Shown here: positions 9,269 through 38,041 of the stretch, in pieces | Layout: each line of letters opens with the position of its first letter | How positions within the stretch are numbered: the first letter of the stretch is position 1 | Assembly: GCA_963922205.1 (NCBI GenBank) | Contig: CAWUHX010000014.1 | Coordinates: forward strand, 1,684,889-1,748,888 | Source of the DNA: Romanomermis culicivorax | Taxonomy: Eukaryota; Nematoda; Enoplea; Mermithida; Mermithidae | DNA: 64,000 bases | Direction of reading: 5' to 3' | Translations under genes and position numbers: made by a program | Notes under the pieces: generated by a model | Told to the model about the DNA's origin: nothing | The model's input: only the letters and a program-made list of their open reading frames with translations | Database searches by the model: none

Positions 9269-9518
9269 TGAATTCCGTTCTGTTCGGAATGCGGGCTCCC
9301 GTTTCGAACACGGCTGTAAGTTATTTGCGAATGTCGTCCAGCACGGAACCTCCTGTATAGTCCATCTCACTATGCAGAGATCGCAATCGCTCCTGGCGAG
9401 TGAGGCCCGTTGCGTAACTGCGCGACCCCTTTGCGTAACTGGGTTTGTAAATTAGTTTTGTCCCTATTTATTGCTCCCTTTTAAGTTCATTTTCAGTTGA
9501 CCCCATCCTTTCTACCTT

Positions 9519-9848
9519 ATGCCACTTTATGCGCTACTCCTGGTGAGTAGGATCTTGCCGGCTACGAGTCCGCCTCGCCCCAAGGTTTGTAAACTAGTAC
9601 AGCGGTCGAACTTCCAGGAAAAATCCCTCCTGAGCGGGTTTATCCGTCACCTTATTTCTCGGCAGGAAAAACCGCCTCTCCTCTTCTTTCTACATGATCT
9701 TCTGTCCTCTTCACCTATTCTAACTGCCGGGTCCAGGCCCCAAACTCTACATTCTGGTCGGGATCGATTCCCCATATCTCAGGCCAAGCCTCTGTCCATC
9801 ACGGGCGACCAGATAAATTCCCTTCTGCGTCACCCTGATGTACTCTGA
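9519..9848 (+). other. Leader open frame, probably not a gene (copy A)
   Basis: A 109-codon open frame lies about 300 bases upstream of gag and is present in copy B at 26287-26616. Between copies it differs at four residues (F/S, S/P, T/I, T/I), so I see no sign of protein-level constraint. Its start lies just downstream of a TTTTCAG splice-acceptor-like site (9493-9499). It may be an upstream ORF or chance. Confidence 0.3.
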
Positions 9849-10151
9849 TCTTACATCTTATAATCCTATTCCATTCTAGCTCCCTTTCCGTGGTCGCTAG
9901 TCTTAAGCTAAGTCAATTTACGTCTTAAACGCCGTCGCACACGCGTTTTTCCGAATTCACGCGCTCTTTCGCCGCGAATTCAAAAGTAGTACTCACTTTC
10001 ATTTTACACAATAGAGACACCCCGTCGTTCCTGCCGTCTCAGTACCCAGCCTGTACAGACCAGTGAGCCGCTCTCTATTCAATTTGACTTAATTGCTTCA
10101 CGGGCAAGGACGTCTGTTCTAACCACCTTACGGGAAAACGAACCCTCGGAC

Positions 10152-16100: not shown

Positions 16101-19100
16101 GCTGGAAGCGTCAGTACCGTGACCAACGGTCACATACCGCTTCAGGTAGTCAACCCGAGTACTCATTCCGTGGTTCTCTACCCACACACGACCATCGGTC
16201 ATGTGCAAATGCATTGTGAGCCCTCACGGGAATCACCGGTCGACTCAGACACCGTCCTCGATCGTCAGTGGGTCGAGGCCAATGCTGTAATCTCACCGGA
16301 CATCTCCCCTCGGGACCGGGCAGCCTTACTCGACCTGCTGGTTGCATACACCGACCTTTATGCTCTTGATGAAAAGGACACAGGTTCCACTGATCTCGTC
16401 CAGCACGAAATCAGCACGGGTGATGCCCGCCCAGTCCGCCGTTTTCCTTACCGGTCCTCACCTAAGGAAAAGGATCTCATCATGCAGGAGGTCAAGGCGC
16501 TCCAGGAGAAAGGTATTATTCGGCCCAGCACGTCTCCGTGGGCTACTAATACTGTCCTGGTGCGCAAGAAAAACGGTTCTCACCGTATGTGTGTTGACTT
16601 TCGTGGTCTTAACGAGGTCACGAAAAAGGATGTCTACCCTCTCCCACGGATAGATGACATCCTCGACACACTCAAGGGTATGAAGTATTTCACTACCCTT
16701 GACCAGGCTAACGCTTATTGGTCAATCCCGATTGCCGAGGCCGATAAGGAAAAGACGGCTTTTAATACGCCTATTGGATTATTCGAATTCAATTATTTGC
16801 CTTTCGGTTTATGCAACGCGCCAGGGACATTTCAACGCCTTATGGACCTCCTCCTTACTGGAATCCAATGGCGCACGGTTCTGACTTATCTCGACGACAT
16901 TTTGGTGTTCGGGAACTCTCACACCCAAATGCTTGAGCGCCTGGCAGATGTGTTCGCCCGTCTTCGCCGGGGTGGAATGAAGCTCAGACTGAGCAAGTGC
17001 AAATTTTCGCACTCGGAGGTAGAGTACCTAGGCTATCGCATCTCACAGAGCGGCCTAGAACCTGACCAAGCCAAGCTGGCCGCCGTCCAAAACCTACCCA
17101 TTCCACAAAACGCCAAAGACATCAAGTCCTTCCTAGGCCTCGTGTCTTACTACAGGCGTTTCATCCCTGGTTGTGCCCGGCTCAGCGAGCCACTAACCAA
17201 GCTCTTACGGAAGGAAACTACTTTCCAGTGGTCAAAACCTCAGCAGGAGGCGTTCGATGAACTCCGCCGCCTGCTGACCAACCCTCCTATCCTGCGCCAT
17301 CCGGACTTTTCGAAATCCTTTATCCTTCAAACTGATGCGAGTATTTCAGGGATAGGAGCGGTTCTTAGCCAGTTAGACGAAAATGGATACGACCATCCTG
17401 TCGCGTACGCCAGCCGAGGGTTAACAGCGGCCGAGAAGAACTACTCCATTACAGAACTGGAGACTCTCGCTGTTGTCCATTTCGTCAAGCACTTTCGACC
17501 ATACCTCTTCCAGCACGAGGTGGTCGTTCAGACTAACCATACCGCGGTCAAAGCAGTGTTGGAGAAGCCTAACCCCTCTGCTCGGATCGCTCGGTGGGGA
17601 CTCGCGCTCGCCGAATTCAAACTGACAATTCGGCCGCGAAAAGGTCAGTCTAATGGTAATGCTGACGCATTATCACGCCTGCCGGATCCTAACTCCCTCA
17701 CCGGTCAGAGTATTGATGATACTCCCCTTTACAGACCTGAGGGGCACGTTATGATGATCACCGATGGTGCGCAGCACCTGGCGAGATCAAGGACCTTGAC
17801 CGATGGTGTGCAGCACCTGGCGCGTTCAAGTAATTCAGCACCGATCACTGTTGGCGCGGAGCGCCCGGTACGATCAGAGTCTTATGCCGAGATATCCGTC
17901 GGTGCGCAGCACCCCGACCTTTTCGCTGCTCAGCTGGAGGATCCGGAATTAGCCGACATCATTCGCTCTCTTAAGCCTCTGGGCGACCAGAATGATGTGC
18001 GAGGCTACCATCTGTTGGATAACGTCCTTCAGAAATGGACAGGCGAGTCCAATAAGATCGTCATACCCAGATCCATGGTTACTACCATTATCCGGGCCCA
18101 TCACGATGACATCTTAGCTGGACATTTCGGTGCTAAACGTACTGCGCGGCTCATTGCTCGCAGATACCACTGGCCCTCCCTCAGTCGGGATGTCAAGTCC
18201 TTCTGTCAGCGGTGTGATCTTTGCCAACGGAATAAGCCCGCTCGACAGAAAACCACTGCGACCCTGAAACCTATCACCATCACGGGACCGTTTCACCGGG
18301 TAGGTGTCGACTGCATGGGACCAATGACCACTAGCGAAGCTGGCAACCGTTTCATCGTAGTCTTTATCGACTACTTTACGAAATGGGTCGAGGCTTTCGC
18401 CACTCCGGACATTACTGCGAACACCATAGCCCGGCTGTTTGTAACGCAAATTGTCTGCCGGCACGGGGCACCGCAGATCCTTCAGTCAGATCGTGGCACT
18501 GATTTCACATCAAAACTGATGACTGAAATCACTGCGATCTGCGCGACGAAGAAAATCCACTCTACTGCCTATCACCCGATGACCAACGGCGAAGTGGAAA
18601 GAGCTAATCAGACGCTAGCCACACGGCTACGTATGTATGTTCATCAAGGACATACTGATTGGGATGAACACCTACCATACGCTGTGTTTGCCGTCAATAT
18701 CAGCATGAATGAGTCAACAGGGTACTCGCCCTTTGAACTCATGTACGGTCGCACACCCATGCTCCCTGTTGACGCCGCGCTCTCATTCAACCCTCCGGCC
18801 CATATCATTAATGTTTCCTCATATGATATGGAGGTCAAACGTCATTTCACGAATGCGTTAACCTTAATCCAGAGTCGGATTGAGAAAGCACAGGAAGCCT
18901 ATGCACGGTCGTACGACCGGAGGGCACATGATGTCTCGTACAAAGTAGGGGACCAGGTGCTCAAACTGCGCACCTCCAGCAAACGTGGACTCACTCCTAA
19001 ATTGCTGCCCATCTACGATGGACCCTACCTTGTAACAAGTGTGGCATATCCCAATGTCACACTTCGTCTCGAGATGGATCAGGAAGACACTGTACATGTC

Positions 19101-19268
19101 AACCAGCTTCGACTTTACGTGTCCCCTGAACAACCAAGTGAAGCAGAGGATACACCTCCCACTTCACAGGCAACGGATTCGGCACCCTTATTGTATCCAT
19201 CAATAAGCCGGGACTTTACACCGAATCTGATTGACCCACATCTTGATGCAGAGGTCCCCGACCCGTAA
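10152..19268 (+). CDS. Gag-Env-PR-PR-RT-RH-IN polyprotein, copy A
   Basis: A single 3038-aa frame. In order it holds a Gag capsid-like region (about 48-220), a short coiled coil (about 258-283), a CX2HX4HX4C cluster (315-328) and two CCHC knuckles (from 348 and from 366). Residues about 610-840 are an Arg/Pro/Ser-rich segment overprinted by another frame. An Env-like segment follows, with signal/anchor at about 857-880, a Cys-rich ectodomain with N-glycosylation sequons, and a transmembrane helix at about 1406-1432. Retropepsin 1 has DTG at 1493-1495 and retropepsin 2 has DTG at 1825-1827. RT has YLDD at 2246-2249. RNase H and an integrase with HHCC and DDE residues complete it. One RNase H aspartate is changed: TDH reads TNH at residue 2462. 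Stop is TAA. Ty3/gypsy type by RT-RH-IN order; the Env position is atypical. Confidence 0.92.
11981..12670 (+). CDS. Overprinted accessory ORF, copy A
   Basis: A 229-aa frame starts with ATG at 11981 and ends at TGA 12668-12670, in the +2 phase relative to the polyprotein. The N-terminal half is globular-looking ([18 protein letters not shown] and onward), the middle is Ala/Pro/Thr-rich, and the C-terminus is acidic (SDSDEEEI). A splice acceptor-like TTTCTTGTTCACAG ends at 11957, 23 bases before the ATG. Compared with copy B, almost all single-base differences fall on third positions of this frame and are silent. Those same bases are second positions in the long frame. I do not recognise a family. 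A possible role is a regulatory or structural accessory protein made from spliced RNA; this is inference. Confidence 0.7.
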
Positions 19269-19787
19269 CTCAGGATGCACTCTCTTCATTGTCCCCGCTT
19301 ACGGACGAGGACGTCCTTTTTCGAAGGACCGCCGTGCCCCTCACGAAGTATCCACTCTTGTCCATGCTGGATCTTAGTGGATAGAAGAGAGCGTTCAGCA
19401 ACCTAAGCGTCACGCCTTAGGCGCATCCTCACGCGATAGCCTACACCTCTCAGGGTGCATCCTCTGCGATAGCCCGACAATCTGTACCTCACTGGGCGCA
19501 TCCTCTGCGATAGCCTACATCTTGCCCTGAAAATTTTTTCTTTTCTGTGTTCCAGACCTTCGCACAGGATATTCAATGTCGGCAACTCCACGCATCAACA
19601 ACCTCCGGTCACCATACCACCGAACGAATTACGATCAAAGAAGGCCTCATCCACCGACAACCCAACGGACCTATTCGACCACTCTCGCCGTCACACCTTG
19701 GAATGACCTACGACCACGGACACGCCGCATAAAACCTCACTACTGACCACTGCAAGGACGAGGACGCCCTTTTTCGAAGGACCGCCG
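19269..19787 (+). other. 3' untranslated region of copy A with tandem repeats
   Basis: Between pol and the LTR there are three 34-41-bp repeats with a GCATCCTC..GCGATAGCC core (19420-19529). A sequence of about 38 bases, GGACGAGGACG(T/C)CC, TTTTTCGAAGGACCGCCGTG, occurs first at about 19303 and again directly against the LTR start at about 19757. The second copy is where a polypurine tract would be expected; it is only partly purine-rich. Confidence 0.65.
19576..19746 (+). CDS. Small conserved basic ORF after pol, copy A
   Basis: A 56-aa frame with many Arg, Pro and Thr residues starts 20 bases after a strong 3' splice signal (TTTTTTCTTTTCTGTGTTCCAG, AG at 19554-19555). It ends with TGA before the LTR. 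The nucleotide sequence is unchanged in copy B. With the LTR splice donor this could be the last exon of a spliced transcript. No family is recognised. Its small size and the overall near identity of the copies mean conservation alone does not prove coding. Confidence 0.4.
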   Translation: MSATPRINNLRSPYHRTNYDQRRPHPPTTQRTYSTTLAVTPWNDLRPRTRRIKPHY

Positions 19788-21237
19788 TGTCACGTGCCGC
19801 TCAATTCTCCAACGTCACGTGATCCCGATCATGCCGACATTTTGTTATTTTTCATGTTTTGTTTATTACCCGATCATGCTTTTGTTTATTTCATTTTTAC
19901 ACATGCATTTTTACGTTCGTTTTTATATTTTTATGCATTTCTATGTTTCGTTTTGTTGTATTTTTATTTCTTTACAAACGCGGGCTACAGTAGGCCCTTT
20001 AGCTAAAAACTTCCGCCAGTCGTGCTCCACGAGCACATGGCTATTTTTGGTGCGCTCACGCACCTCTTATCATCAAAAATTAGCGTCGTTTTTGTTACGC
20101 AAAACGACTAGCTAAGAAGTTTTAGCTAAAGACGTTCATATGCTTAGCATAGGCACTGCAGCCGGCCTCAGTGCTAAACGCATGTGAATGAAAAAATGTC
20201 TATGTGCTCATAGGCATCTTCTGCATCGCGTCTAGCTGCAGAAGTTAGCTCGAGCGCCGAGAACTCCGCCCAAGCTGCAGCTGTAGCCAAACATGTCCTT
20301 AAAAGGACATGTTTCTTTAGTTTTTCGCTCATTCTTGGGTTCACCAAGCTTTTCGTCCAGTTGTCACTTCGCGTCCGCCGCCCTTCTTAATTTACATATT
20401 TTTATATACTCGACTGCGTCCGCCGCCTATTATCCTAAATAAATTTGCATATTTTTGCGTTACTTACTGCGTCCGCCGCTCACCGCCTACCGTACCCCGC
20501 TGCCCATCAGTGCCAGGTGTCCGACCGCCCCGGTTCGTGAATTAAACGTTGGAGTTTCGCCTCCCGCTCACTCCCGCTCCCTCCCGCTCGCCGCCGCTCG
20601 CCGCCTAGGACGTTTGAGGATCGTACCCCTCGCTCCCAGTGCCAGAAGACCGAAAGCATCCAGGGACCCGCCGCCCGTTGCGTCGTAATCGCTTGAGAAA
20701 CAGGACTAGGTGAGTCTTCTCAGGGGATTATTGTTATTTGTGGGTTATTTGTTGGGAAATCCTTCCTGAGTTGGTTTCCCAAGGTTTCCACAGATAAGTA
20801 GGGCCTCCACCTCTCAGGTTCGGGCTAAAAGGGGCTGTCTGGTTCATAATCGGGTCCCATAATTTAGGTCATTTTACGGGTGACCCTGTCCCCACTCTCA
20901 CTGAGTAGGACTCGGGGATTGTCGCACCTAGCCTGGCAGCGTTGTCCATTACCCTACAGCAAGACCCCAAGGACAACTCCAGAGAACCAACTATAGACCT
21001 CTCTATAGCCACCAATTGCCAGGTTAGGCCCCCAACGCCATTTAGGGAATCCTGGGGAAAACGCCAGTATCCATCAGGAGTCACAGCCTATTACTCACTG
21101 TAATAGGATCAATCTGATATGGTTCACCATCAATGTGACGTCTAAAACACGGTATCACCTGATGAGATACCCAAACCTCCCCAGCTCTTCCAAATCCACA
21201 TGTCATACACGTGACATGGATGGCGCAATATGTGACA
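19788..21237 (+). repeat. 3' LTR of copy A
   Basis: Starts TGTCACGTG and ends TGTGACA. It is 1450 bp against 1462 bp for the copy B LTRs. Most of it matches them closely, but about 20345-20475 is clearly diverged and has small indels. It carries the hairpin run, an AATAAA site and the CTAG|GTGAGT donor. Confidence 0.9.
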
Positions 21238-21774: not shown

Positions 21775-22006
21775 TGTCACGTGCCGCTCAATTCTCCAAC
21801 GTCACGTGATCCCGATCATGCCGACATTTCGTTATTTTTCATGTTTTGTTTATTACCCGATCATGCTTTTGTTTATTTCATTTTTACACATGCATTTTAC
21901 GTTCGTTTTTATATTTTTATGCATTTCTATGTTTCGTTTTGTTGTATTTTTATTTCTTTACAAACGCGGGCTACAGTAGGCCCTTTAGCTAAAAACTTCC
22001 GCCAGT

Positions 22007-22335
22007 CGTGCTCCACGAGCACATGGCTATTTTTGGTGCGCTCACGCACCTCTTATCATCAAAAATTAGCGTCGTTTTTGTTACGCAAAACGACTAGCTA
22101 AGAAGTTTTAGCTAAAGACGTTCATATGCTTAGCATAGGCACTGCAACCGGCCTCAGTGCTAAACGCATGTGAATGAAAAAATGTCTATGTGCTCATAGG
22201 CATCTTCTGCATCGCGTCTAGCTGCAGAAGTTAGCTTGAGCGCCGAAAAACTCCGCCCAAGCTGCAGCTGTAGCCAAACATGTCCTTAAAAGGACATGTT
22301 TCTTTAGTTTTTCGCTCATTCTTGGGTTCACCAAG
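22007..22335 (+). ncRNA. Run of perfect stem-loops in the LTR
   Basis: Successive perfect stems lie at 22008-22022 (GTGCTC/GAGCAC), 22035-22050 (GGTGCG/CGCACC), 22071-22094 (GTCGTTTT/AAAACGAC), 22095-22114 (TAGCTAA/TTAGCTA), 22204-22230 (CTTCTGC/GCAGAAG), 22233-22263 (AGCTTG/CAAGCT), 22276-22301 (12-bp AAACATGTCCTT/AAGGACATGTTT) and 22321-22335 (CTTGG/CCAAG). All are repeated in the 3' LTR, and mostly in copy A. This looks like a structured RNA element in the transcript, function unknown. Confidence 0.6.
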
Positions 22336-22704
22336 CTTTCGTCCAGTTGTCACTCCGCGTCCGCCGCCTCCTCGTCAAATTTGCATAATTTTATTATATA
22401 CCTGTGCGTCCGCCGCCTTACTATCAATAAATTTGCATAAATTTACCCGTGTTCACTGCGTCCGCCGCTTACCGTTTACAGTACCCCGCTGCCCATCAGT
22501 GCCAGGTGTCCGACCGCCCCGGTTCGTGAATTAAACGTTGGAGTTTCGCCTCCCGCTCGCTCCCGATCCCTCCCGCTCGCCGCCGCTCGCCACCGCTCGC
22601 CGCCTAGGACGTTTGAGGATCGCATCCCCCGCTCCCAGTGCCAGAAGACCGAAAGCATCCAGGGACTTGCCGCCCGTTGCGTCGTAATCGCTTGAGAAAC
22701 AGGA

Positions 22705-22714
22705 CTAGGTGAGT
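22705..22714 (+). promoter_or_regulatory. Candidate 5' splice site in LTR
   Basis: CTAG|GTGAGT fits the eukaryotic donor consensus closely and is conserved in all three LTRs. With acceptors at 26264, 28725 and 36347 it would allow spliced subgenomic RNAs. This is inferred from sequence only. Confidence 0.5.
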
Positions 22715-23236
22715 CTTCTCAGGGGATTGTTGTTATTTGTGGGTTATTTGTTGGGAAATCCTTCCTAAGTCGGTTTCCCAAGGTTTCCACAGATAAGTAG
22801 GGCCTCCACCTCTCAGGTTCGGGCTAAAAGGGGCTGTCTGGTTCATAATCGGGTCCCATAATTTAGGTCATTTTACGGGTGACCCTGTCCCCACTCTCAC
22901 TGAGTAGGACTCGGGGATTGTCGCACCTAGCCTGGCAGCGTTGTCCATTACCCTACAGCAAGACCCCAAGGACAACCCAAGAGAACCAGCTATAGACCTC
23001 TCTATAGCCACTAATCGCCAGGTTAGGCCCCCAACGCCATTTAGGGAATCCTGGGGAAAATGCCAGTATCCATCAGGAGTCACAGCCTATTACTCACTGT
23101 AATAGGATCAATCTGATATGGTTCACCATCAATGTGACGTCTAAAACACGGTATCACCTGATGAGATACCCAAACCTCCCCAGCTCTCCCAAATCCACAT
23201 GCCATACACGTGACATGGATGGCGCAATATGTGACA

Positions 23237-24442: not shown

Positions 24443-25142
24443 TGACGTCAGCAACAACAACGTTACGGGTTGTTGTTGTTGTGTGGTTCAGCCTCACGGA
24501 TGCAACCACTAACGTCTGCAACAGCCGCTTCACTTGCTGTTGCTTTAAGGGGTGGGTAGCCCTCCGGGTTCTACCCGTGACGTCAGCAACCGGCACTACG
24601 TGTTGTTGTTCAAGTTAACACTCCAGCAGTAATGACTTCTGACGTCTGCAACAGGTGAAGCCAATGTTGTTGTAACAGGTTCGGCTGGTTCCCTGCACCC
24701 CATCTGTGACGTCAGCAATGGTGACGCACCGTGTCACTATTCGAAGATGTGCAGGTCTTACGGGTGCCACATCTGACGTCTGCAACAACTGCATCTCATG
24801 TCATTGGTCTAAGGTATCAGACCCTCGGTCCCACCTTTTTGACGTCAGCAACGGCACCATCACGTGTTGCTGTATACCGATAGCTGGCTTCAGGGCCCTA
24901 TTGCTGACGTCAGCAATGACAATGTATCATGCTCTCGCAGCAGGAATTGAGGTTACATGATCCTATTTCTGACGTCTGCAACGGTAACATTACGTGCTAC
25001 TGCAGGGGTTTGCTGGCCTTAGGCACTCACCCCTGGCGTCTGCAACTGCGACGTGATACTTGAATACTCTTATCCCAGGCACCTGCAGTCAGCACCAAGG
25101 TTATGTGTTGGTCCATACCCCCTACCTTCTGACGTCCGCACC
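24443..25142 (+). repeat. 66-bp periodic array of TGACGTC(A/T)GCAAC
   Basis: Core starts at 24443, 24510, 24578, 24640, 24707, 24774, 24840, 24905, 24970, 25034, 25084 and 25130. Spacing is mostly 62-68 bases and then shrinks. A further core lies at 25469. Many cores contain TGACGTCA, the palindromic CRE/ATF-type bZIP site; others read TGACGTCT. The intervening sequence is degenerate, so the core is what has been kept. An enhancer or protein/RNA-binding array is plausible. Confidence 0.75.
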
Positions 25143-26250
25143 AGGTTACTGTCGGCCCTATGAGTATTCCACTTGAGTTGTAGGTGGTCGCTGGCGCATG
25201 GTCCTATCACCTACCTCTCTTGTTCAAGGGTTGTGTGTGTCTGGGGGCTGATGCCTGGGAAACATCAGTCCACATACATACACCACCTGAGATGCTCACT
25301 AGCCTACGTACTGATCAGGTTGTCCGCCCGGGTAGCGGCACTGTTGATCAGTATGTGGCTGTTTTCAAGCTTTAACTGCAGGTTTGAACGAGTTACACTC
25401 GGCCTCAGCTGGGTTGGTTGTCTGACTCGAGCAGATAGCAGGCATTTGCAGTCGGTACTGCCTGTGTCTGACGTCTGCAAGGGTTCGGCAATCTTCTTGT
25501 AAATTTCTTATCTAAGTTCACTCATTTTCTTTCATCTCATCGAGCTGTCATACATAGATCTTCTTTAGTGTCCCCGCCGTAGTGGTTCCTAAGGGACCGC
25601 GGCACAGCCTCCGGTTGGGCCTAGAGTGTATAGGACCCCCTGTCATATTTCTTTCACTTGAACGCCTTCGTTAACTGGCTTAACCATGCCCGCGCTAGAG
25701 TCGCCACTGACCCAGAGTCCGCCTCCGCGGTCCACCCTTTACTAGTCATGTAAGTAATAGGCACCGTTGAGTCCGCCTCAGCGAAGGTATTGAGTACGCC
25801 TCGATACATACTTTACACTCATATTCAATCAGGGACACCTTGTACCCGTGATCCCTTAGATGTTTTCGGGTGCGCCCTCAAAACATCCAGAGTATTTCAT
25901 TTTTAACTGACTGAGTGTGTCAGAATAGCACCCTTGGTACCCGTGCTCCTTCCCTCTTCTACTGTGTGACCTGCGAACCTCACTTCATCTCAGTGATCGG
26001 CAAACCCGGCCACCAGCTGTGTATAATCCTCCTGGAGAGTGTCCGTTCTGTTCGGAATGCGGGCTCCCGTTTCGGACACGGCTGTAAGTTACTTGCGAAT
26101 GTCGTCCAGCACGGAACCTCCTGTATAGTCCATCTCACTATGCAGAGATCGCAATCGCTCCTGGCGAGTGAGGCCCGTTGCGTAACTGCGCGACCCCTTT
26201 GCGTAACTGGGTTTGTAAATTAGTTTTGTCCCTATTTATTGCTCCCTTTT

Positions 26251-26264
26251 AAGTTCACTTTCAG
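26251..26264 (+). promoter_or_regulatory. Candidate leader 3' splice site
   Basis: ACTTTCAG in copy B and ATTTTCAG in copy A (AG at 9498-9499) match the nematode TTTTCAG acceptor. Splicing from the LTR donor would remove about 3.55 kb of leader, including the 66-bp array. Confidence 0.4.
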
Positions 26265-26286
26265 TTGACCCCATCCTTTCTACCTT

Positions 26287-26616: not shown

Positions 26617-26919
26617 TCTTACATCTTATAATCCTATTCCATTCTAGCTCCCTTTCCGTGGTCGCTAGTCTTAAGCTAAGTCAACTTACGTCCTAAACGC
26701 CGTCGCACACGCGTTTTTCCGAATTCACGCGCTCTTTCGCCGCGAATTCAAAAGTAGTACTCACTTTCATCTTACACAATAGAGACACCCCGTCGTTCCT
26801 GCCGTCTCAGTACCCAGCCTGTACAGACCAGTGAGCCGCTCTCTATTCAATTTGACTTAATTGCTTCACGGGCAAGGACGTCTGTTCTAACCACCTTACG
26901 GGAAAACGAACCCTCGGAC

Positions 26920-29900
26920 ATGAAGTCGGAAACTGATCTCCCTTCACAGATCGAGAACAAGGTCCAGGCAGCATTTGAGAATGCTCTTCGACCCCTCAAC
27001 CAAAAGTTAGAGGCCATAAATGGTCGGAGGCACCCTCCCGTGTCCAGCTTTATGGCCCCTCCCACCTTCTCCGGTGCTTTTGGTGAGTCTATCACCGATT
27101 TTATGTCGCATCTTACCCGTTTCTTTACACTCCAGAGTGTAAGCGAAACGGATCATGCGTATAAAATCGCCTTTCTGGAGTCATGCCTCACGGGTCCTGC
27201 TCTCGCCTCCTACCGGGACTTTAGCAGCAGCACTCCAATACCTACCCGCTACGAAGAGTTTACGGCTTTTCTACGGAGAGATTTTCCGGTAGGGCGCGAC
27301 TCTGATCTACATCAGCAGCTGATCCAAGATCGACTGCAGAAGCCGACGGAGTCCGCGATAGTCTACCTTGAGCACCTCAAGAGACTATCCAGGGTAGCGT
27401 ATCCAGATCTCGCGACGGATGTCCGAGATTCCATCATCAAACCTATCTTTCTGCGGGGACTGAAGCCGGTCCTCCGAGATAGTATCAAGTTTAGGGAGTT
27501 CACGACTCTTGAAGAGACACTCAAGGCAGCCTGTTACGCAGAATCCCAAATCTTTCGGGACGAGATCCGGTACACTGCTCCATCTAACGCCGTTTTCTCT
27601 TCAGAACCTAAACACGCCGGATATAATCCCGATATGCCCAACAGAAGCGCAAACGGTCGTCAGAGCAACGCTCCAACGTCGTCATCCTCCGCCGATGAGG
27701 TTCGCCGCTTGAAACAGGAAATGGCCAGGCTCACGGCCCACGTAGTGAAGCTCACGGCCCAGCAACGTGCACCCGCGCCAATCCAACAGACGCCGCCTCC
27801 ACAGCCGTCGACACCCAATCAGTCCGCCGGGCGACGCTCGTCGGGAGCACACCTTCAAACGTGCTCCTTCCACGGACTGTGTACACATAGCGACGCCGAT
27901 TGCCGGGCCCAGCGTCCCACCGGTGCCGCTCCCGGTAACAACGCCGCTAACGGTGGTCGCTGTTATTTTTGCCGTACACGTGCCCACCCCACGGACCGAT
28001 GTGATAGGCCATGCCCTCATTGTCGTCAAGTGCGAGTGCACCGATCAACTGCCTGTCCGCAGCGCAATCCGGCAAACACGGGTGAGAATGTCTACCAAGA
28101 TACTGGTTATTCTTCCCAGGGGACAAATGTGTATCATCAAAGAAATGGTTACCACCCTCCCAACGGGACAGGAAACCACTATCGGCAGCCCATACGCCGC
28201 AACAACGCCGTTGGGGCTACCGATAGCCCTCCTCATCCAGATCCTCTTGACCTGGATGATGAGGCACTTGCTGAACACCTGACAGATTCTTCACAACAGT
28301 GTTATCCTGTCTGCGTAATCAGTATTGAATTTTCAGTGGTCCAAGCAGCCCAGGTACCCGTACCGATGAACGTATCGGACATACCGCTGCCACCACCACC
28401 ACCAAAGTATGCGATGCCGGTCACTCTGGACCCCTCGACGACACCGCAGTTTGTTGGCCACGCTAACATCCTCGCATCGTATCGCATTCCTAAGCTCAAG
28501 ACTGCCGAGCCAGCTCCAGCCGCGAATACGACGTCTTCGGCGCCACCGGCCCGCATCGTCCCTCCAGGACCACCGCCTTCGATCCCCACGGATTCGGCTA
28601 CGGAAGTCCTCGACCAGGTCGAGCCCATGAATTTGTCAGGTATACTACCTTCTTCTTCAGGTGATCCTAGAGTAGGAACCAGGAATCTATCTCAGTCCAC
28701 GACTCTATTGATTTCTCGTTCACAGCGCCATCGCCCGTCCAAGACGCGATGTTGGCCATCTGGTCAGTCGACCTGGCCAAGAAATACCCGCATTTGCCGT
28801 GGACTCTCCTCAACGAGCCATCAAATGTCGAAGCGCTCACGGCCGCCGACGTCGTGCTTGCAGCACCCGTCTCGATGCGCCTATTACGACCCGACGTCGC
28901 CCGCCGGGCACTCGAGTTCATTGCCAATGGAACTATCACCATCTCGCCCGTCGAGAAGTTCTTATTGGACGGGGAGCCATCCTCGCCTTCGGTCGATGCC
29001 GTCCGCCGAGCAGTCGAACAGGCCAGTCGGATTCTCCTGCCTGCTGCCGCCGCCACACCACCGGCAGCAGCGCAACCCGTTGCCGCGACATCGCCAACGA
29101 AAATGGATATCACTGCTTCCTCGCCCCCGGCCAAGGAACTCGCAAATGATCCCACACCGCCGGCACCAGCCCAACATACATCGTCGGCAACAGCCCACGT
29201 CAATTCGCCGGCACCAGCCCGCACGACATCTCCGACCGCTGCGACCAGGTCGCCCGTCGTCGAACCCATGGCCGTCGACGAGACCTTACGTCCAGTTAAT
29301 GAGGATGTCAGCATTGTCGAAACATCACCGTTCCCAACGGCAGTCAACCCACGGTCGCCGAAAGTCGGTACCCTTCGGGAAATCCTCCCCAGCGGTGAAT
29401 TGGTCCTCGATTTCCCCGACCAGGAACCAATCTCGTCCGACAGCGACGAAGAAGAAATCTGACACTGCCCCTCAGGCCAGATTTGTGAAATTGAGTGAAC
29501 ACTTACAAATTACGTTTGTACAGTTGTTTTTGACAATAAAATTGACCTTGGTAGCATCACTGTTTCTAGGGGTGAGTTTGTCAGCACCGGCGGCTCAGTA
29601 TCAATTTTGCGGTCTCTCAAGAAGCGGACATCCACTTGAGTTACCCCAGCGTGTAGAGTGTAAACCACCGCAATCTTCATGGAGCCCGCGGCGCATGAAT
29701 GTTACGGTGTATGTCCCTAGCTCAGACCCGATTACAACCACAGCGTGGAAATGCACATTGCGCTCCCGCAAAGTCTGCACCAACACTGGTTTCTTCGGCT
29801 CTAGGGGCATCACTGCAGACGTCATCACCGCTCAGCACTTAGCGCCTGCGGCATGCACGCTAGCACATCGCACTAAAATGTTTGGTTCACAAAAACTTGT

Positions 29901-32900
29901 CGGCATTCGCCCTGGCTTTTATAGCACAAACCAAACATTGGAAGTGATGTACGCATGGTGCTGCAGCGACGTCTGCAAGACAGTGACTAACCTCTTCATC
30001 GAGGAGGGACAAGTCGCTTCGTGGGACGGCACTACGGCCCTGAGTACCTTAGGCGATGTAGGTGGATGCAGTCCCACTGCAGGCCAGTGCACTACTCTAG
30101 ACGGGGTCATTGTCTGGCCTGCACAAAACTTCACGGCGCGGTGTCATTATCACCCCAAGGGAAATTACACTGCGTCCATGTCAGGGAACCACGTCATCAT
30201 CGATGATCTGCAGGTTGCCCTCAAGATCCCGGGAAACTCCCGTGTCTTCCAACTGTGCCCAGAACTACGTTCCACCACAGTCCGGACGGATCAGGGTCTT
30301 CTCCTTCGCATCCACGGGAGATACAATTTGACCCAAAACATGTTCAGAGTGGCAACGGACAGCCGTCCCGATCCTGTCAATGCCAAGCTGAACTATCTGG
30401 CTCAGCAGATCAAGGAGTCGGAAATTAACGGTTTCCGGTTCACGTGGCTTGAGCTTTGCTCTCACGCTCAACGCTATCTTGATCTGACTTGGCAGTTGCT
30501 TCGCTTCGACCCTACCCTGGGTGCCCGGGCATTCCTCCAAAGGAATGACCTGACGGCGGAATTCACAGGCGATGCACTGACAATATGGCCGTGTCAGAAG
30601 GTCCACGCAACCTACGTTTACCATTCGTACCGGGTGGGGAACGTTTGCTACAAGTACTTACCTGTACAGGTTGGCGGCACCATCTATTTCGCCACCCCCG
30701 GTGGTCCGGATCTCATTAAATCTAGCCCAATTGTGCCGTGTCATCACCACTTTACAGGGATTTTCCGAAATCGCTCGGGCTGGTTTACTGAGTCTGGCGC
30801 GGTCCATGTGAGCCACATCCCACTGGAACTCTTCTGGAAGCAGCGCTTCAACATCACTCACTTTGAGGCACCGGCGCTCTTCCATGACCAGTTGGCGATG
30901 ACCCCTTCAAACTTTGCCTTCTTTAAACAGTACGTTTACAAGACTGAGCAAATTGAAGCGGTACTCAACCGGCTGGTAAACTTTACCGCTGGTCTATCCC
31001 TGCAACCAGACGCCATCTACCAGGCCTTTGCAGGGGTAGGAACCGACATCAAGGCCTCTCTGGAAGGTGTCGGTTTGGCAGCAAACCATGTTATTACGGG
31101 TCAAGAGCACACCCTCGCCCAGGGCTTGCATGCTGTCCTGAGCGGGCCGGTCCAGTTGATCTTTAACATCCTAATTACCCTGACAGTGCTGATCGGTGCA
31201 GGATACCTTGCCTATCTTGGTGTATCTTATTATCTCAGCTACCGTCTGCGGAGCAAACAGGTCAGGTTTGTTAGCCGTTTCTCCCCGTTGGGTCTTTACC
31301 GCAAAGTCCAACGCTGGGTCGGTTTTCACTACGTGCAAAACGATGTGCCCTCCCAGCTTGACCGGATCACACCGTGCTTCGTCGTGCTGCTGGACACCAA
31401 GGAAACTCCTGCTTTCCTTGATACGGGTTGCCCACGCACTATCATTAGCCAACGCCTTCATAAAGCCTTGGCTAAAGAAAGTCCGAAGGCGGTCATGGCG
31501 TTCCAGCAACATCACGACTTTAACCCATTGATGAGCATCAATGGTAAAGCCGTTCATACCATCCTTTCGGGACCATATGAAATCATGTTGCCCGGAAACC
31601 GCCAGCCGAACACACGGATCGATGTACATCTCCATGTGTGCAAGACTACGTCTCCCTTCTGGGCACCTGTTGACCTCATACTCGGACTGGACTTCTTAGA
31701 ACAGTTCAAGAACATTATGTTTGACTACCAACGTAATGTTTGTCGGCTGGACGCGGTAGAATTACCCCTCCTGCTGACCACGCCGGAGATTGACCAGATC
31801 GACCCCTGGTGGGAGAACACTCGTGCTCTCTCGCGAAACTCACACAGGTCGGGATCACGATCGCGGTCCAGGGCTTCGTCCATCTCTCGGCCACACTCAC
31901 GGGCCTCCTCAGTTGCTTCATCACGTGGGTCAGCTAGGGGATCCTGGGCCTCTTCTAGACGGGCAAGTCGTCATCTGTCGACCTTGCACGGGTCAGGTTG
32001 CCCTCGACCTCCGCCTGGAACCTCTCCAGTTACGCTTGAGAAGGGCCGATACCGCGAGCCAAGTGATTCAGATGCTCCGACATCACCCGTGCCAAACGCG
32101 CCTCCGCTATCGGACACCGAGGTTGAATCACTAGGAGCTACTCAGAGTCCGAAGGATCACTCAGACCACATACTAACGGTACAGGATGAGTCCACCCTTC
32201 TGAATGACCCGGAACCCTCCGTCGGATACGCTCTAGTAGGCCTCCTACGTCGTACGGGACTGCCGATTCCAAAGCGGTCCGGTAAGACCAAACATGTCAG
32301 TGGTGCCACCACACCTGATTCCGGTCATGTGGTCACGGCTTTTTACCCAAATGATATTCGGACACCTCATATCAAAGTTCTCCTCAACAACTGGGTAGAA
32401 GCGAAGGCACTGGTCGACACAGCAGCTGTTTTCTCACTCTTGGACCACAAGTTAGCGGCCCAGCTGCCCAACTTGTCACTATCACCAACCAGGGCACGCC
32501 CTATCGCAGCCAACGGGTCCCCGATCCCACTGCTAGGAGCAGCCTACATCACAGTTACAGTGGCTGATGTCTCTGAACGGATTCAGGTCCAGATACAGGA
32601 GAACTGTTCAGCTGAACTGGTCCTAGGAACCAACTTCCTCGGCCGGTTCAATTGTGTCAGTTTGAACTGGGAGAAATCTTTCCTCCAGTTCAAAGAGAGT
32701 AGAATCCCCTGTGACGGTCTCATCCACAGCCCACCTTCTGCCCGCGGCGCTTTGCCCCTGAAGGACTTGGTGATTCTAGAGCCTCGCTCACTGACACGAT
32801 TCACTGTCCCTGTCCCACCAATCTATACGAACGTGCCTGAGGTGGCCTTCTTTCCGAAGCACCTCACCGGGTCTCAACGACACGTATATTTTGCTGGAAG

Positions 32901-35900
32901 CGTCAGTACCGTGACCAACGGTCACATACCGCTTCAGGTAGTCAACCCGAGTACTCATTCCGTGGTTCTCTACCCACACACGACCATCGGTCATGTGCAA
33001 ATGCATAGTGAGCCCTCACGGGAATCACCGGTCGACTCAGACACCGTCCTCGATCGTCAGTGGGTCGAGGCCAATGCTGTAATCTCACCGGACATCTCCC
33101 CTCGGGACCGGGCAGCCTTACTCGACCTGCTGGTTGCATACACCGACCTTTATGCTCTTGATGAAAAGGACACAGGTTCCACTGATCTCGTCCAGCACGA
33201 AATCAGCACGGGTGATGCCCGCCCAGTCCGCCGTTTTCCTTACCGGTCCTCACCTAAGGAAAAGGATCTCATCATGCAGGAGGTCAAGGCGCTCCAGGAG
33301 AAAGGTATTATTCGGCCCAGCACGTCTCCGTGGGCTACTAATACTGTCCTGGTGCGCAAGAAAAACGGTTCTCACCGTATGTGTGTTGACTTTCGTGGTC
33401 TTAACGAGGTCACGAAAAAGGATGTCTACCCTCTCCCACGGATAGATGACATCCTCGACACACTCAAGGGTATGAAGTATTTCACTACCCTTGACCAGGC
33501 TAACGCTTATTGGTCAATCCCGATTGCCGAGGCCGATAAGGAAAAGACGGCTTTTAATACGCCTATTGGACTATTCGAATTCAATTATTTGCCTTTCGGT
33601 TTATGCAACGCGCCAGGGACATTTCAACGCCTTATGGACCTCCTCCTTACTGGAATCCAATGGCGCACAGTTCTGACTTATCTCGACGACATTTTGGTGT
33701 TCGGGAACTCTCACACCCAAATGCTTGAGCGCCTGGCAGATGTGTTCGCCCGTCTTCGCCAGGGTGGAATGAAGCTCAGACTGAGCAAGTGCAAATTTTC
33801 GCACTCAGAGGTAGAGTACCTAGGCTATCGCATCTCACAGAGCGGCCTAGAACCTGACCAAGCCAAGCTGGCCGCCGTCCAAAACCTACCCATTCCACAA
33901 AACGCCAAAGACATCAAGTCCTTCCTAGGCCTCGTGTCTTACTACAGGCGTTTCATCCCTGGTTGTGCCCGGCTCAGCGAGCCACTCACCAAGCTCTTAC
34001 GGAAGGAAACTACTTTCCAGTGGTCAAAACCTCAGCAGGAGGCGTTCGATGAACTCCGCCGCCTGCTGACCAACCCTCCTATCCTGCGCCACCCGGACTT
34101 TTCGAAATCCTTTATCCTTCAAACTGATGCGAGTATTTCGGGGATAGGAGCGGTTCTTAGCCAGTTAGACGAAAATGGATACGACCATCCTGTCGCGTAC
34201 GCCAGCCGAGGGTTAACAGCGGCCGAGAAAAACTACTCCATTACAGAACTGGAGACTCTCGCTGTTGTCCATTTCGTCAAGCACTTTCGACCATACCTCT
34301 TCCAGCACGAGGTGGTCGTTCAGACTGACCATACCGCGGTCAAAGCAGTGTTGGAGAAGCCTAACCCCTCTGCTCGGATCGCTCAGTGGGGACTCGCGCT
34401 CGCCGAATTCAAACTGACAATCCGGCCGCGAAAAGGTCAGTCTAATGGTAATGCTGACGCATTATCACGCCTGCCGGATCCTAACTCCCTCACCGGTCAG
34501 AGTATTGATGATACTCCCCTTTACAGACCTGAGGGGCACGTTATGATGATCACCGATGGTGCGCAGCACCTGGCGAGATCAAGGACCTTGACCGATGGTG
34601 TGCAGCACCTGGCGCGTTCAAGTAATTCAGCACCGATCACTGTTGGCGCGGAGCGCCCGGTACGATCAGAGTCTTATGCCGAGATATCCGTCGGTGCGCA
34701 GCACCCCGACCTTTTCGCTGCTCAGCTGGAGGATCCGGAATTAGCCGACATCATTCGCTCTCTTAAGCCTCTGGGCGACCAGAATGATGTGCGAGGCTAC
34801 CATCTGTTGGATAACGTCCTTCAGAAATGGACAGGCGAGTCCAATAAGATCGTCATACCCAGATCCATGGTTACTACCATTATCCGGGCCCATCACGATG
34901 ACATCTTAGCTGGACATTTCGGTGCTAAACGTACTGCGCGGCTCATTGCTCGCAGATACCACTGGCCCTCCCTCAGTCGGGATGTCAAGTCCTTCTGTCA
35001 GCGGTGTGATCTTTGCCAACGGAATAAGCCCGCTCGACAGAAAACCACTGCGACCCTGAAACCTATCACCATCACGGGACCGTTTCACCGGGTAGGTGTC
35101 GACTGCATGGGACCAATGACCACTAGCGAAGCTGGCAACCATTTCATCGTAGTCTTTATCGACTACTTTACGAAATGGGTCGAGGCTTTCGCTACTCCGG
35201 ACATCACTGCGAACACCATAGCCCGGCTGTTTGTAACGCAAATTGTCTGCCGGCACGGGGCACCGCAGATCCTTCAGTCAGATCGTGGCACTGATTTCAC
35301 ATCAAAACTGATGACTGAAATCACTGCGATCTGCGCAACGAAGAAAATCCACTCTACCGCCTATCACCCGATGACCAACGGCGAAGTGGAAAGAGCTAAT
35401 CAGACGCTAGCCACACGGCTACGTATGTATGTTCATCAAGGACATACTGATTGGGATGAACACCTACCATACGCTGTGTTTGCCGTCAATATCAGCATGA
35501 ATGAGTCAACAGGGTACTCGCCCTTTGAACTCATGTACGGTCGCACACCCATGCTCCCTGTTGACGCCGCGCTCTCATTCAACCCTCCGGCCCATATCAT
35601 TAATGTTTCCTCATATGATATGGAGGTCAAACGTCATTTCACGAATGCGTTAACCTTAATCCAGAGTCGGATTGAGAAAGCACAGGAAGCCTATGCACGG
35701 TCGTACGACCGGAGGGCACATGATGTCTCGTACAAAGTAGGGGATCAGGTGCTCAAACTGCGCACCTCCAGCAAACGTGGACTCACTCCTAAATTGCTGC
35801 CCATCTACGATGGACCCTACCTTGTAACAAGTGTGGCATATCCCAATGTCACACTTCGTCTCGAGATGGATCAGGAAGACACTGTACATGTCAACCAGCT

Positions 35901-36060
35901 TCGACTTTACGTGTCCCCTGAACAACCAAGTGAAGCAGAGGATACACCTCCCACTTCACAGGCAACGGATTCGGCACCCTTATTGTATCCATCAATAAGC
36001 CGGGACTTTACACCGAATCTGATTGACCCACATCTTGATGCAGAGGTCCCCGACCCGTAA
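26920..36060 (+). CDS. Gag-Env-PR-PR-RT-RH-IN polyprotein, copy B
   Basis: 3046 aa, uninterrupted, with the same domain order as copy A and 8 extra residues in the overprinted zone. Gag has capsid, coiled coil and three Zn clusters. The Env-like part spans about 29512-31262. Retropepsin 1 has DTG from 31420 (D1501) and an ILGLDFL-type second motif. A Ser/Arg-rich linker lies at 31832-31982. Retropepsin 2 reads DTA (GCA at 32422) where copy A has DTG. RT YLDD is at 33679-33690. RNase H TDH is intact (D2470), as is the integrase HHCC/DDE set. A linker between RNase H and integrase holds four short repeats. As one translation product it would be a membrane polyprotein with Gag and Pol cytosolic and Env luminal. 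Confidence 0.93.
28749..29462 (+). CDS. Overprinted accessory ORF, copy B
   Basis: 237 aa, same +2 phase, same ATG context and same acidic tail as in copy A. It is 24 bases longer in the Ala/Pro/Thr repeat. Excluding that repeat, I count about 15 third-position differences from copy A in this frame (14 silent, one E/D) and about 5 at first or second positions (for example S/P, P/Q, P/L, K/R). The third-position differences are all second positions of the long frame. The long frame is still open in both copies. No family recognised. Confidence 0.7.
29512..31262 (+). other. Env-like glycoprotein segment of copy B polyprotein
   Basis: A hydrophobic stretch ending in SLSAPAAQ resembles a signal peptide with a cleavage site. 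The next roughly 520 residues have many cysteines, Trp-Cys-Cys and N-x-S/T sequons. A hydrophobic C-terminal helix ([20 protein letters not shown]) and a basic tail follow. This is the layout of a class I membrane glycoprotein such as retroviral or captured rhabdo/chuvirus-like Env. The exact fusion-protein class cannot be decided by eye. It sits upstream of protease rather than after integrase. No start codon lies just before the signal, so it is made from the polyprotein or by splicing. Confidence 0.75.
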
Positions 36061-36579
36061 CTCAGGATGCACTCTCTTCATTGTCCCCGCTTACGGACGA
36101 GGACGTCCTTTTTCGAAGGACCGCCGTGCCCCTCACGAAGTATCCACTCTTGTCCATGCTGGATCTTAGTGGATAGAAGAGAGCGTTCAGCAACCTAAGC
36201 GTCACGCCTTAGGCGCATCCTCACGCGATAGCCTACACCTCTCAGGGTGCATCCTCTGCGATAGCCCGACAATCTGTACCTCACTGGGTGCATCCTCTGC
36301 GATAGCCTACATCTTGCCCTGAAAATTTTTTCTTTTCTGTGTTCCAGACCTTCCCACAGGATATTCAATGTCGGCAACTCCACGCATCAACAACCTCCGG
36401 TCACCATACCACCGAACGAATTACGATCAAAGAAGGCCTCATCCACCGACAACCCAACGGACCTATTCGACCACTCTCGCCGTCACACCTTGGAATGACC
36501 TACGACCACGGACACGCCGCATAAAACCTCACTACTGACCACTGCAAGGACGAGGACGCCCTTTTTCGAAGGACCGCCG
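36061..36579 (+). other. 3' untranslated region of copy B
   Basis: Same contents as in copy A: three GCATCCTC..GCGATAGCC repeats (about 36212-36321), a splice acceptor ending at 36347, and the duplicated GGACGAGGACG..CGAAGGACCGCCGTG word at about 36096 and at the LTR edge (about 36549-36581). Confidence 0.65.
36368..36538 (+). CDS. Small conserved basic ORF after pol, copy B
   Basis: 56 aa, same sequence as in copy A, 20 bases after a pyrimidine-rich acceptor. It could be a spliced accessory peptide. Weak support beyond conservation and splice context. Confidence 0.4.
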   Translation: MSATPRINNLRSPYHRTNYDQRRPHPPTTQRTYSTTLAVTPWNDLRPRTRRIKPHY

Positions 36580-38041
36580 TGTCACGTGCCGCTCAATTCT
36601 CCAACGTCACGTGATCCCGATCATGCCGACATTTCGTTATTTTTCATGTTTTGTTTATTACCCGATCATGCTTTTGTTTATTTCATTTTTACACATGCAT
36701 TTTACGTTCGTTTTTATATTTTTATGCATTTCTATGTTTCGTTTTGTTGTATTTTTATTTCTTTACAAACGCGGGCTACAGTAGGCCCTTTAGCTAAAAA
36801 CTTCCGCCAGTCGTGCTCCACGAGCACATGGCTATTTTTGGTGCGCTCACGCACCTCTTATCATCAAAAATTAGCGTCGTTTTTGTTACGCAAAACGACT
36901 AGCTAAGAAGTTTTAGCTAAAGACGTTCATATGCTTAGCATAGGCACTGCAACCGGCCTCAGTGCTAAACGCATGTGAATGAAAAAATGTCTATGTGCTC
37001 ATAGGCATCTTCTGCATCGCGTCTAGCTGCAGAAGTTAGCTTGAGCGCCGAAAAACTCCGCCCAAGCTGCAGCTGTAGCCAAACATGTCCTTAAAAGGAC
37101 ATGTTTCTTTAGTTTTTCGCTCATTCTTGGGTTCACCAAGCTTTCGTCCAGTTGTCACTCCGCGTCCGCCGCCTCCTCGTCAAATTTGCATAATTTTATT
37201 ATATACCTGTGCGTCCGCCGCCTTACTATCAATAAATTTGCATAAATTTACCCGTGTTCACTGCGTCCGCCGCTTACCGTTTACAGTACCCCGCTGCCCA
37301 TCAGTGCCAGGTGTCCGACCGCCCCGGTTCGTGAATTAAACGTTGGAGTTTCGCCTCCCGCTCGCTCCCGATCCCTCCCGCTCGCCGCCGCTCGCCGCCG
37401 CTCGCCGCCTAGGACGTTTGAGGATCGCATCCCCCGCTCCCAGTGCCAGAAGACCGAAAGCATCCAGGGACTTGCCGCCCGTTGCGTCGTAATCGCTTGA
37501 GAAACAGGACTAGGTGAGTCTTCTCAGGGGATTGTTGTTATTTGTGGGTTATTTGTTGGGAAATCCTTCCTAAGTCGGTTTCCCAAGGTTTCCACAGATA
37601 AGTAGGGCCTCCACCTCTCAGGTTCGGGCTAAAAGGGGCTGTCTGGTTCATAATCGGGTCCCATAATTTAGGTCATTTTACGGGTGACCCTGTCCCCACT
37701 CTCACTGAGTAGGACTCGGGGATTGTCGCACCTAGCCTGGCAGCGTTGTCCATTACCCTACAGCAAGACCCCAAGGACAACCCAAGAGAACCAGCTATAG
37801 ACCTCTCTATAGCCACTAATCGCCAGGTTAGGCCCCCAACGCCATTTAGGGAATCCTGGGGAAAATGCCAGTATCCATCAGGAGTCACAGCCTATTACTC
37901 ACTGTAATAGGATCAATCTGATATGGTTCACCATCAATGTGACGTCTAAAACACGGTATCACCTGATGAGATACCCAAACCTCCCCAGCTCTCCCAAATC
38001 CACATGCCATACACGTGACATGGATGGCGCAATATGTGACA
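36580..38041 (+). repeat. 3' LTR of copy B
   Basis: 1462 bp, TGTCACGTG to TGTGACA, followed by the ATAG target duplication. One difference from the 5' LTR found (37397). Confidence 0.95.

What the first reader, a model, noticed from the sequence alone, without database searches (positions are those of the whole stretch)
26920..36060. Retrotransposon polyprotein with Env placed between Gag and protease
The frame shows Gag with Zn knuckles, then a signal/anchor, Cys-rich glycosylated ectodomain and C-terminal transmembrane helix, then protease, RT, RNase H and integrase. In retroviruses, errantiviruses and known env-bearing nematode LTR elements, env follows pol. An in-frame Env before Pol implies a membrane-threaded polyprotein, or spliced expression of Env-Pol, not described in the gypsy families I know. 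Present in both copies.
Basis: partly seen in the sequence, partly recalled or inferred. Interest (0 to 1): 0.9.

Follow-up and report, generated by a model that had tools for sequence, protein, structure and literature searches.

The report
Retroelement with envelope before its polymerase
A young, virus-like jumping gene, probably from a roundworm, carries a captured viral membrane-fusion protein in an unusual place, between its capsid gene and its enzymes, and distant relatives carry it in the same place.

Summary
26920-36060 is one open frame of 3046 codons in a complete LTR element (21775-38041; LTRs 1462 bp, 1 difference; TSD ATAG), in the order Gag, Env, protease, RT, RNase H, integrase. 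A 5'-truncated copy has the same frame (10152-19268). Residues ~869-1437 are a class III viral fusion glycoprotein (Pfam Monjiviricetes_fusion, 2e-14; fold matches to herpesvirus gB and negative-strand RNA virus glycoproteins). Pol is Ty3/gypsy-type. The order is a lineage trait: three database relatives (Env 35-40% identical) have Gag then Env in one ORF, and the two with pol read Gag-Env-PR-RT-RH-IN. Ten literature searches surfaced no description of it (listings; nine papers opened in part). Corrections: (1) in the 256 codons between Gag and Env (28699-29466) selection protects the +2 frame (15 of 23 changes synonymous, against 1 of 23 in the polyprotein frame), whose ORF stops about 60 nt before the Env signal, though both frames stay open; (2) there are two tandem protease-like domains. 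How Env is expressed (one polyprotein, splice-controlled frame switch, or spliced Env-Pol mRNA) is unresolved. Host genome and transcripts could not be examined; nematode origin rests on weak chemoreceptor matches.

The parts
21775..23236 (+). 5' LTR (TGTCACGT...GTGACA, 1462 bp); TSD ATAG at 21771-21774; PBS-like TGGCGAGGCTGGAAAATCGA follows
24443..25480 (+). array of TGACGTC(A/T)GCAA sites in the leader, ten on the + strand at 62-68 nt spacing from 24443 to 25045, one more at 25469
   Evidence: 12 of the window's 20 matches with up to 1 mismatch lie here; 0.58 expected in the whole window, 0 of 100 shuffles reach 20
26920..36060 (+). single open frame Gag-[dual-coded stretch]-Env-PR1-PR2-RT-RNase H-integrase, 3046 codons
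27088..27534 (+). Ty3-type capsid domain of Gag
   Evidence: PF19259, 9.8e-8
27862..28056 (+). three Cys/His (zinc-knuckle-like) motifs
28640..28695 (+). candidate 56-nt intron (CAG|GTATAC ... CTCAG) whose removal would move Gag into the +2 frame; not shown to be spliced
   Evidence: donor ranks 75 of 955, acceptor 53 of 810 by a recalled consensus; in copy A two bases near the acceptor differ, AG kept
28671..29462 (+). +2-frame ORF (first ATG 28749, 237 aa from there, TGA 29460-29462): Gag C-terminal domain or accessory protein; the constrained frame here
29524..29592 (+). internal signal/anchor of Env
29593..31125 (+). Env ectodomain, class III fusion glycoprotein (PF24664 best stretch 30376-30813)
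31126..31230 (+). Env C-terminal transmembrane segment
31340..31800 (+). PR1, retropepsin-like (DTG next to 31417, LILG at 31675), behind the Env membrane anchor; below Pfam cut-offs on its own
32340..32720 (+). PR2, retropepsin-like (DTA next to 32413, LVLG at 32617)
33352..33834 (+). reverse transcriptase (YLDD at 33679)
34021..34410 (+). RNase H
34855..35370 (+). integrase (H2C2 and rve core)
36580..38041 (+). 3' LTR, 1 difference in 1462 from the 5' LTR; TSD ATAG at 38042-38045
9274..21237 (+). second copy, 5'-truncated, same ORF (10152-19268), 98.3% identical to 26042-38041

Best explanation
A young, intact env-bearing Ty3/gypsy element whose lineage captured a class III fusion glycoprotein of the negative-strand RNA virus type (Monjiviricetes) and keeps it between Gag and protease, in the Gag and Pol frame. 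Most likely working: unspliced RNA is translated as Gag-linker-Env-PR-RT-RH-IN. The internal signal carries the Env ectodomain into the ER lumen and the C-terminal helix returns the chain to the cytosol, so that Gag and Pol lie on the same side. Signal peptidase and the element's protease(s), the first of which follows the membrane anchor, cut the chain. Gag alone, or Gag with a C-terminal domain, comes from RNA in which a frame switch (a 56-nt intron or another splice) moves ribosomes into the +2 frame, which ends just before Env. Shown: order, domain identities, conservation in relatives, selection on Env and on the +2 frame. Inferred: translation as one chain, topology, cleavage, the splice switch, fusion activity.
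For: Domains and order. Complete element with TSD and near-identical LTRs. Same order in relatives: P0009 Gag 106-250, Env 846-1407, PR 1529-1663, RT 1701-2087, RH 2094-2239, IN 2301-2732; P0010 Env 642-1194, PR 1337-1430, RT 1489-1887, RH, IN; P0008 Gag then Env. P0010's Gag: no match to the whole Gag piece at E 0.1, but its first 330 residues match the capsid piece (3e-7) and P0008's capsid (2e-24) in single comparisons, and it has a CCHC knuckle at 322. Of 3 relatives with Gag and Env, 3 have Env after Gag in one ORF; of 2 with pol, 2 have Env before PR. Of those two, P0009 is nearer in Env and in RT (Env 40 and 37%, RT 43 and 34%), as one old capture would give. In the window the nearest in-frame ATG before the Env signal is 73 codons upstream (29305); the nearest upstream Met is about 313 residues away in P0008 and about 53 in P0010 (signals placed by eye), so Env seems to need upstream coding sequence. 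Env under purifying selection (13 of 17 synonymous, p 2.6e-5); its 16 Cys are invariant in three sequences and 15 of 16 in six rows. Both frames held open over 28699-29466: chance of an open polyprotein frame given the +2-frame protein 0.012 (own codons shuffled) or 0.0002 (element codon usage); the converse 0.0034. Class III fold. Precedents: BARE1 splices a 104-nt CAG/GTAT intron to make a stop after Gag (PMC3735527, passages); Cer1 has a single polyprotein frame and a spliced protein with one exon in another frame than gag (PMC10309623).
Against: No RNA or protein evidence. In the overlap the polyprotein frame shows 22 nonsynonymous of 23 changes, so no constraint on its residues. The proposed intron's splice sites are mediocre (75th of 955 and 53rd of 810). 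The strongest acceptors (28336, 27604, 28660) and the LTR donor (22709) fit spliced subgenomic RNAs as well. P0008 has no pol behind Env, and P0009 has a Met just before its Env signal, so relatives may make Env in other ways. The +2 ORF has no clear counterpart in the relatives (weak matches only: P0008 Gag region 0.004, P0009 0.072). Whether the database proteins are raw ORFs or gene models is not stated. Env model mean pLDDT 54.7 and whole-chain TM about 0.26 to the best gB row; the long central helix lies in a low-confidence part.
Confidence: 0.68

Rival explanations
1. Env-Pol is made from a spliced subgenomic RNA: donor in the 5' LTR (22709) to an acceptor in late gag (28336), starting at ATG 28366 in the polyprotein frame; a second splice to 28660 gives the +2-frame protein from ATG 28749. 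No Gag-Env-Pol chain matters.
For: On the + strand of the element 28336 is the best-scoring of 810 AG sites and 28660 the third; 22709, tied with its 3' LTR twin, is the best of 955 GT sites. After 28336 the first ATG is in the polyprotein frame; after 28660 it is that of the +2 ORF. Acceptors 28336 and 28660 are identical in copy A. Retroviral env is normally spliced (PMC10309623, passage).
Against: Scores come from a consensus that I recalled, for a host that is not identified. A long R/S/P-rich stretch would still sit before the signal. It does not explain why Gag, too, is in the same open frame in three relatives.
Confidence: 0.3
2. The +2-frame ORF is a separate regulatory protein, like Cer1 CERV, rather than the Gag C-terminus, and the polyprotein frame stays open only because it is recent or by chance.
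For: Selection on the +2 frame; Cer1 parallel; acidic C-terminus, no Pfam match.
Against: Open polyprotein frame over 256 codons is unlikely by chance (0.012 and 0.0002), and relatives read through from Gag to Env.
Confidence: 0.25
3. The middle domain is a Gag or linker domain, not an envelope protein.
For: None found.
Against: PF24664 matches in the window (2.1e-14), P0007 (9.7e-14) and P0008 (1.2e-11), and precomputed for P0009 and P0010; signal, 8 sequons and TM; class III fold matches.
Confidence: 0.02
4. Env is a dead passenger, captured once and no longer used.
For: No functional data; P0007 ends without a clear anchor.
Against: Synonymous excess in Env between copies; 16 of 16 Cys invariant in three sequences and 15 of 16 in six rows, one of which is the window's own second copy.
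Confidence: 0.08

Closest known systems
Cer1 (C. elegans, Ty3/gypsy; PMC10309623: abstract, passages and two sections; PMC3315495: passages)
   Same: Ty3/gypsy type; single Gag-Pol frame without a stop between; a spliced product with an exon in another frame than gag
   Different: No known fusion glycoprotein; [quoted passage not shown]
Atlas virus and kin (Ancylostoma, Belpaoviridae; PMC9094657: abstract, introduction and passages)
   Same: Nematode element with captured viral fusogen inside one polyprotein of 2828 residues
   Different: BEL/Pao type; class II Gc-like Env; Env is the last domain (Gag-Pol-Env)
Tas (Ascaris; as told in PMC9094657, passages)
   Same: Nematode retroelement whose env has weak similarity to herpesvirus gB, a class III protein
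   Different: It stands among the belpaoviruses of that paper's RT tree; place of env not checked here
Anakin (mosquito BEL/Pao with chuvirus glycoprotein; PMC7642597, passages)
   Same: Glycoprotein of the chuvirus type captured by an LTR element
   Different: BEL/Pao; the group's 2023 follow-up found no clear evidence of capture by Gypsy or Copia elements (PMC10084718, passages)
Errantiviruses (gypsy of Drosophila; recalled)
   Same: Ty3/gypsy elements with an envelope gene
   Different: Env behind pol, usually from a spliced RNA, baculovirus-F type (recalled)
BARE1 (barley Copia; PMC3735527, passages)
   Same: Works like: small CAG/GTAT intron at the end of gag shifts the frame to a Gag-only product
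   Different: Plant Copia element, no Env mentioned in what I read, 104-nt intron

Membership tests
Ty3/gypsy (Metaviridae) | PR-RT-RNase H-IN order with Ty3-type RT | tested here: met
   (closest solved RT is Ty3, 4ol8, 6.7e-88)
Ty3/gypsy (Metaviridae) | Ty3-type capsid in Gag | tested here: met
   (PF19259, 32.1 bits against cut-off 29.1)
Ty3/gypsy (Metaviridae) | LTRs with TG..CA ends and 4-6 bp TSD | tested here: met
   (TSD ATAG); shared with most LTR elements, so weak
Ty3/gypsy (Metaviridae) | place in an RT tree with reference clades | not tested
   no reference set was at hand; only pairwise scores
Errantivirus-like gene order | env behind pol | tested here: not met
   stop at 36058-36060, then 519 nt to the 3' LTR, and no further ORF of 150 aa there
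Belpaoviridae (Atlas, Tas, Anakin) | BEL/Pao-type pol | tested here: not met
   pol matches are Ty3/gypsy-type Pfam families and Ty3 RT; none of the BEL-type families I recall is listed at E up to 1
Class III fusion glycoproteins (Monjiviricetes_fusion, PF24664) | profile match above cut-off | tested here: met
Class III fusion glycoproteins (Monjiviricetes_fusion, PF24664) | class III fold | tested here: met
   model of low mean confidence (54.7) and its long helix 304-347 lies in a low-confidence part, so supportive only
Class III fusion glycoproteins (Monjiviricetes_fusion, PF24664) | membrane fusion activity | not testable with these tools
   needs a bench test
Splice-switched Gag (BARE1-like working) | spliced RNA that ends after Gag | not testable with these tools
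   no RNA data; candidate sites only

The most novel reading that the evidence does not exclude
A retroelement lineage that makes its fusogen as an internal, membrane-threaded domain of a Gag-Env-Pol chain, much as flaviviruses place their envelope behind the capsid. Behind the anchor follows a duplicated protease (DTG and DTA copies that might pair in one chain), and a small intron inside a dual-coded stretch switches between Gag alone and Gag-Env-Pol.
Probability: 0.3. Interest if true: 0.92.

Novelty: new variant of a known kind. Interest (0 to 1): 0.8.

Why it matters
Envelope capture is how retrotransposons are thought to become retroviruses, and in the cases that I read about or recall env stands behind pol. 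A lineage with env ahead of protease would show another successful route. It also adds a Ty3/gypsy host for a chuvirus/bornavirus-type fusogen, where a 2023 survey found no clear capture by Gypsy (PMC10084718, passages). It makes a testable question of how such an element separates a secreted glycoprotein from cytosolic Gag and Pol. The dual-coded stretch is a natural experiment in overlapping genes.

Tried and rejected
Non-Env nature of residues 850-1440: rejected (profile, fold, relatives). Chance opening of the frame: rejected for the lineage because relatives share it. Canonical -1 slippery heptamer at the Gag frame change: none seen by eye in 28671-28760. First copy comparison covered only part of the copies because of its gap settings, and was replaced. 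PR2 was read in a wrong frame and redone. First Env model (pLDDT 38.7) was useless and replaced. Scans of viral contigs (41 pattern matches, 0 confirmed) and prokaryote contigs (29 and 0) with the Env alignment found no relative. PHROGs: no match for Env or the +2 ORF. Protein searches gave 1, 1 and 3 hits out of 7897, 7990 and 7988 scored candidates, 4 distinct proteins; P0007 (Env only) is left out of the order counts. The length windows would have admitted many Env-last polyproteins, but only candidates sharing exact words were scored. PDB sequence search with Env gave only weak matches to bacterial adhesins (best 0.019). A weak match of the +2 ORF to P0008 Gag (0.004) was not pursued. Other copies in the host genome could not be searched.

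Papers: ten searches surfaced no gag-env-pol order; only open-access text is held, and some lists were cut (20 of 137, 20 of 1548, 15 of 26, 12 of 17, 10 of 83). Opened in part (passages, some sections or the abstract): PMC7642597, PMC9094657, PMC10309623, PMC3315495, PMC12440569, PMC10084718, PMC3735527, PMC8556966, PMC6238403; none read whole. In the last two the phrase 'between gag and pol' stood only in a reference title. The other papers were seen as listings only.

Full report
WHAT IS THERE. One search lists one ORF of 3046 codons at 26920-36060 and a second of 3038 codons at 10152-19268. Self-comparison and the ends show a complete element at 21775-38041: LTRs of 1462 bp with a single difference, TG..CA ends and TSD ATAG on both sides. 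The other copy (9274-21237) lacks its 5' LTR and most of the leader, and is 98.3% identical to 26042-38041. The element is therefore young, and its frame is open in both copies.

DOMAINS. Pieces were scanned apart: Ty3_capsid at Gag residues 57-205; Monjiviricetes_fusion (PF24664, 2.1e-14) in 29467-31239; gag-asp_proteas, RVT_1, RNase H, H2C2 and rve behind it. The closest solved RT is Ty3 (4ol8, 6.7e-88). The RT motif is YLDD. The seven pieces tested hold only two hydrophobic regions, just before and at the end of the glycoprotein; 28640-28698 was not covered. Env has 16 Cys and 8 sequons.

ORDER IS CONSERVED. Three searches gave four relatives. By piecewise BLAST, P0009 (2797 aa) reads Gag 106-250, Env 846-1407, PR 1529-1663, RT 1701-2087, RH 2094-2239, IN 2301-2732. 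P0010 (2535 aa) reads Env 642-1194, PR 1337-1430, RT 1489-1887, RH, IN. Its Gag did not match the whole Gag piece at E 0.1, but its first 330 residues match the window's capsid piece (3e-7) and P0008's (2e-24) in single comparisons, and a CCHC knuckle lies at 322. P0008 (1186 aa) reads Gag then Env and ends after the Env tail. P0007 (536 aa) is Env alone. So 3 of 3 relatives with Gag and Env have them in this order in one ORF, and 2 of 2 with pol have Env before protease. Env identity to the window is 40 (P0009), 37 (P0010), 35 (P0008) and 36-38% (P0007). Of the two with pol, P0009 is nearer in Env, RT, RNase H and IN alike, as expected from one old capture. The organisms behind these proteins are not named.

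THE STRETCH BETWEEN GAG AND ENV. In 28699-29466 the polyprotein frame reads as an R/S/P-rich sequence, while the +2 frame has a protein-like ORF of 237 aa from ATG 28749 that ends in TGA at 29460-29462, about 60 nt before the Env signal. Twenty-three substitutions separate the copies there: 15 synonymous and 8 not in the +2 frame (p 2.5e-4), 1 synonymous and 22 not in the polyprotein frame. The gaps there sum to 24 nt, all in copy A, so both frames survive. The base composition by codon position fits the +2 frame. Yet the polyprotein frame is open more than expected: a fraction of 0.012 of 5000 shuffles of the +2 frame's own synonymous codons, and 0.0002 of 5000 draws from the element's codon usage, leave it open; the converse, an open +2 frame given the polyprotein frame, is 0.0034. 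Both frames therefore seem to be kept, one for its residues and one for being open. For comparison, Gag-N has 14 synonymous and 6 nonsynonymous changes, Env 13 and 4, Pol 32 and 8. The +2 ORF has only weak matches in the relatives (0.004 and 0.072).

HOW IT MAY BE EXPRESSED. A 56-nt stretch 28640-28695 (CAG|GTATAC..CTCAG) would, if spliced, lead from Gag into the +2 frame and so to a stop before Env; an 86-nt version to 28725 would do the same. The sites are mediocre by score. BARE1 does this with a 104-nt CAG/GTAT intron (PMC3735527, passages). Alternatively the LTR donor 22709 joins acceptor 28336 (first ATG 28366, polyprotein frame) or 28660 (first ATG 28749, +2 frame). The splice scores use a nematode consensus that I recalled. 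The leader of 3.7 kb holds many ATGs (48 counted from 22709), so some leader splicing or internal entry is likely. Cer1 offers a parallel: one polyprotein frame, and CERV from a spliced RNA with an exon in another frame than gag (PMC10309623). The nearest ATG in frame before the Env signal is 73 codons upstream (29305), so Env seems to need upstream coding sequence; P0009, in contrast, has a Met just before its signal.

TWO PROTEASES. PR1 (DTG, LILG) follows the Env anchor and PR2 (DTA, LVLG) precedes RT. Both align with the one PR seen in P0009 and P0010 (E 5.5e-5 to 1.1e-9 in single comparisons) and weakly with each other (3.7e-4 over 33 residues). PR1 is below Pfam's cut-off alone (0.0063) and PR2 just above it (30.3 against 28.2 bits). 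They may be a duplication; that they pair in one chain is speculation.

KNOWN RELATIVES. Atlas virus has Env as the last domain of one polyprotein and a class II fold (PMC9094657). Tas has a gB-like env in a BEL/Pao-group element (same paper). Anakin is a BEL/Pao element with a chuvirus glycoprotein (PMC7642597), and the follow-up found no clear capture by Gypsy (PMC10084718). Ten literature searches surfaced no gag-env-pol order. The finding is a new variant of env-bearing LTR elements.

LIMITS. Host genome not searchable. The nematode host rests on chemoreceptor-like ORFs below curated cut-offs. No RNA evidence.

Noticed in passing
window 24443-25480: Leader array of TGACGTC(A/T)GCAA, a CRE/ATF-like palindrome, ten sites at 62-68 nt spacing plus one at 25469; 12 of the window's 20 matches lie here, 0.58 expected in the whole window. 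It recalls the su(Hw) array in the Drosophila gypsy leader (recalled).
   Followed up: partly
window 31340-32720: Two tandem retropepsin-like domains (DTG and DTA), where the two relatives with pol show one.
   Followed up: partly
window 23237-26919: Very long leader (3.7 kb) with a run of 50 A at 24247-24296 and many upstream ATGs (48 counted from 22709).
   Followed up: no
window 59944-61673 (-): Fragment of another retroelement: Retrotrans_gag and aspartyl-protease matches, below curated cut-offs.
   Followed up: no
window 40291-58702: Chemoreceptor-like 7TM ORFs (7tm_1, Srx, Srbc matches in three of four ORFs tried, all below cut-off) with mutually similar stretches at 43901-45194, 53284-54147 and 57757-59050; they suggest a nematode host.
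   Followed up: no
P0009: Its precomputed Pfam list includes PF00076, recalled as RRM_1, an RNA-binding domain; its place in the protein was not determined.
   Followed up: no
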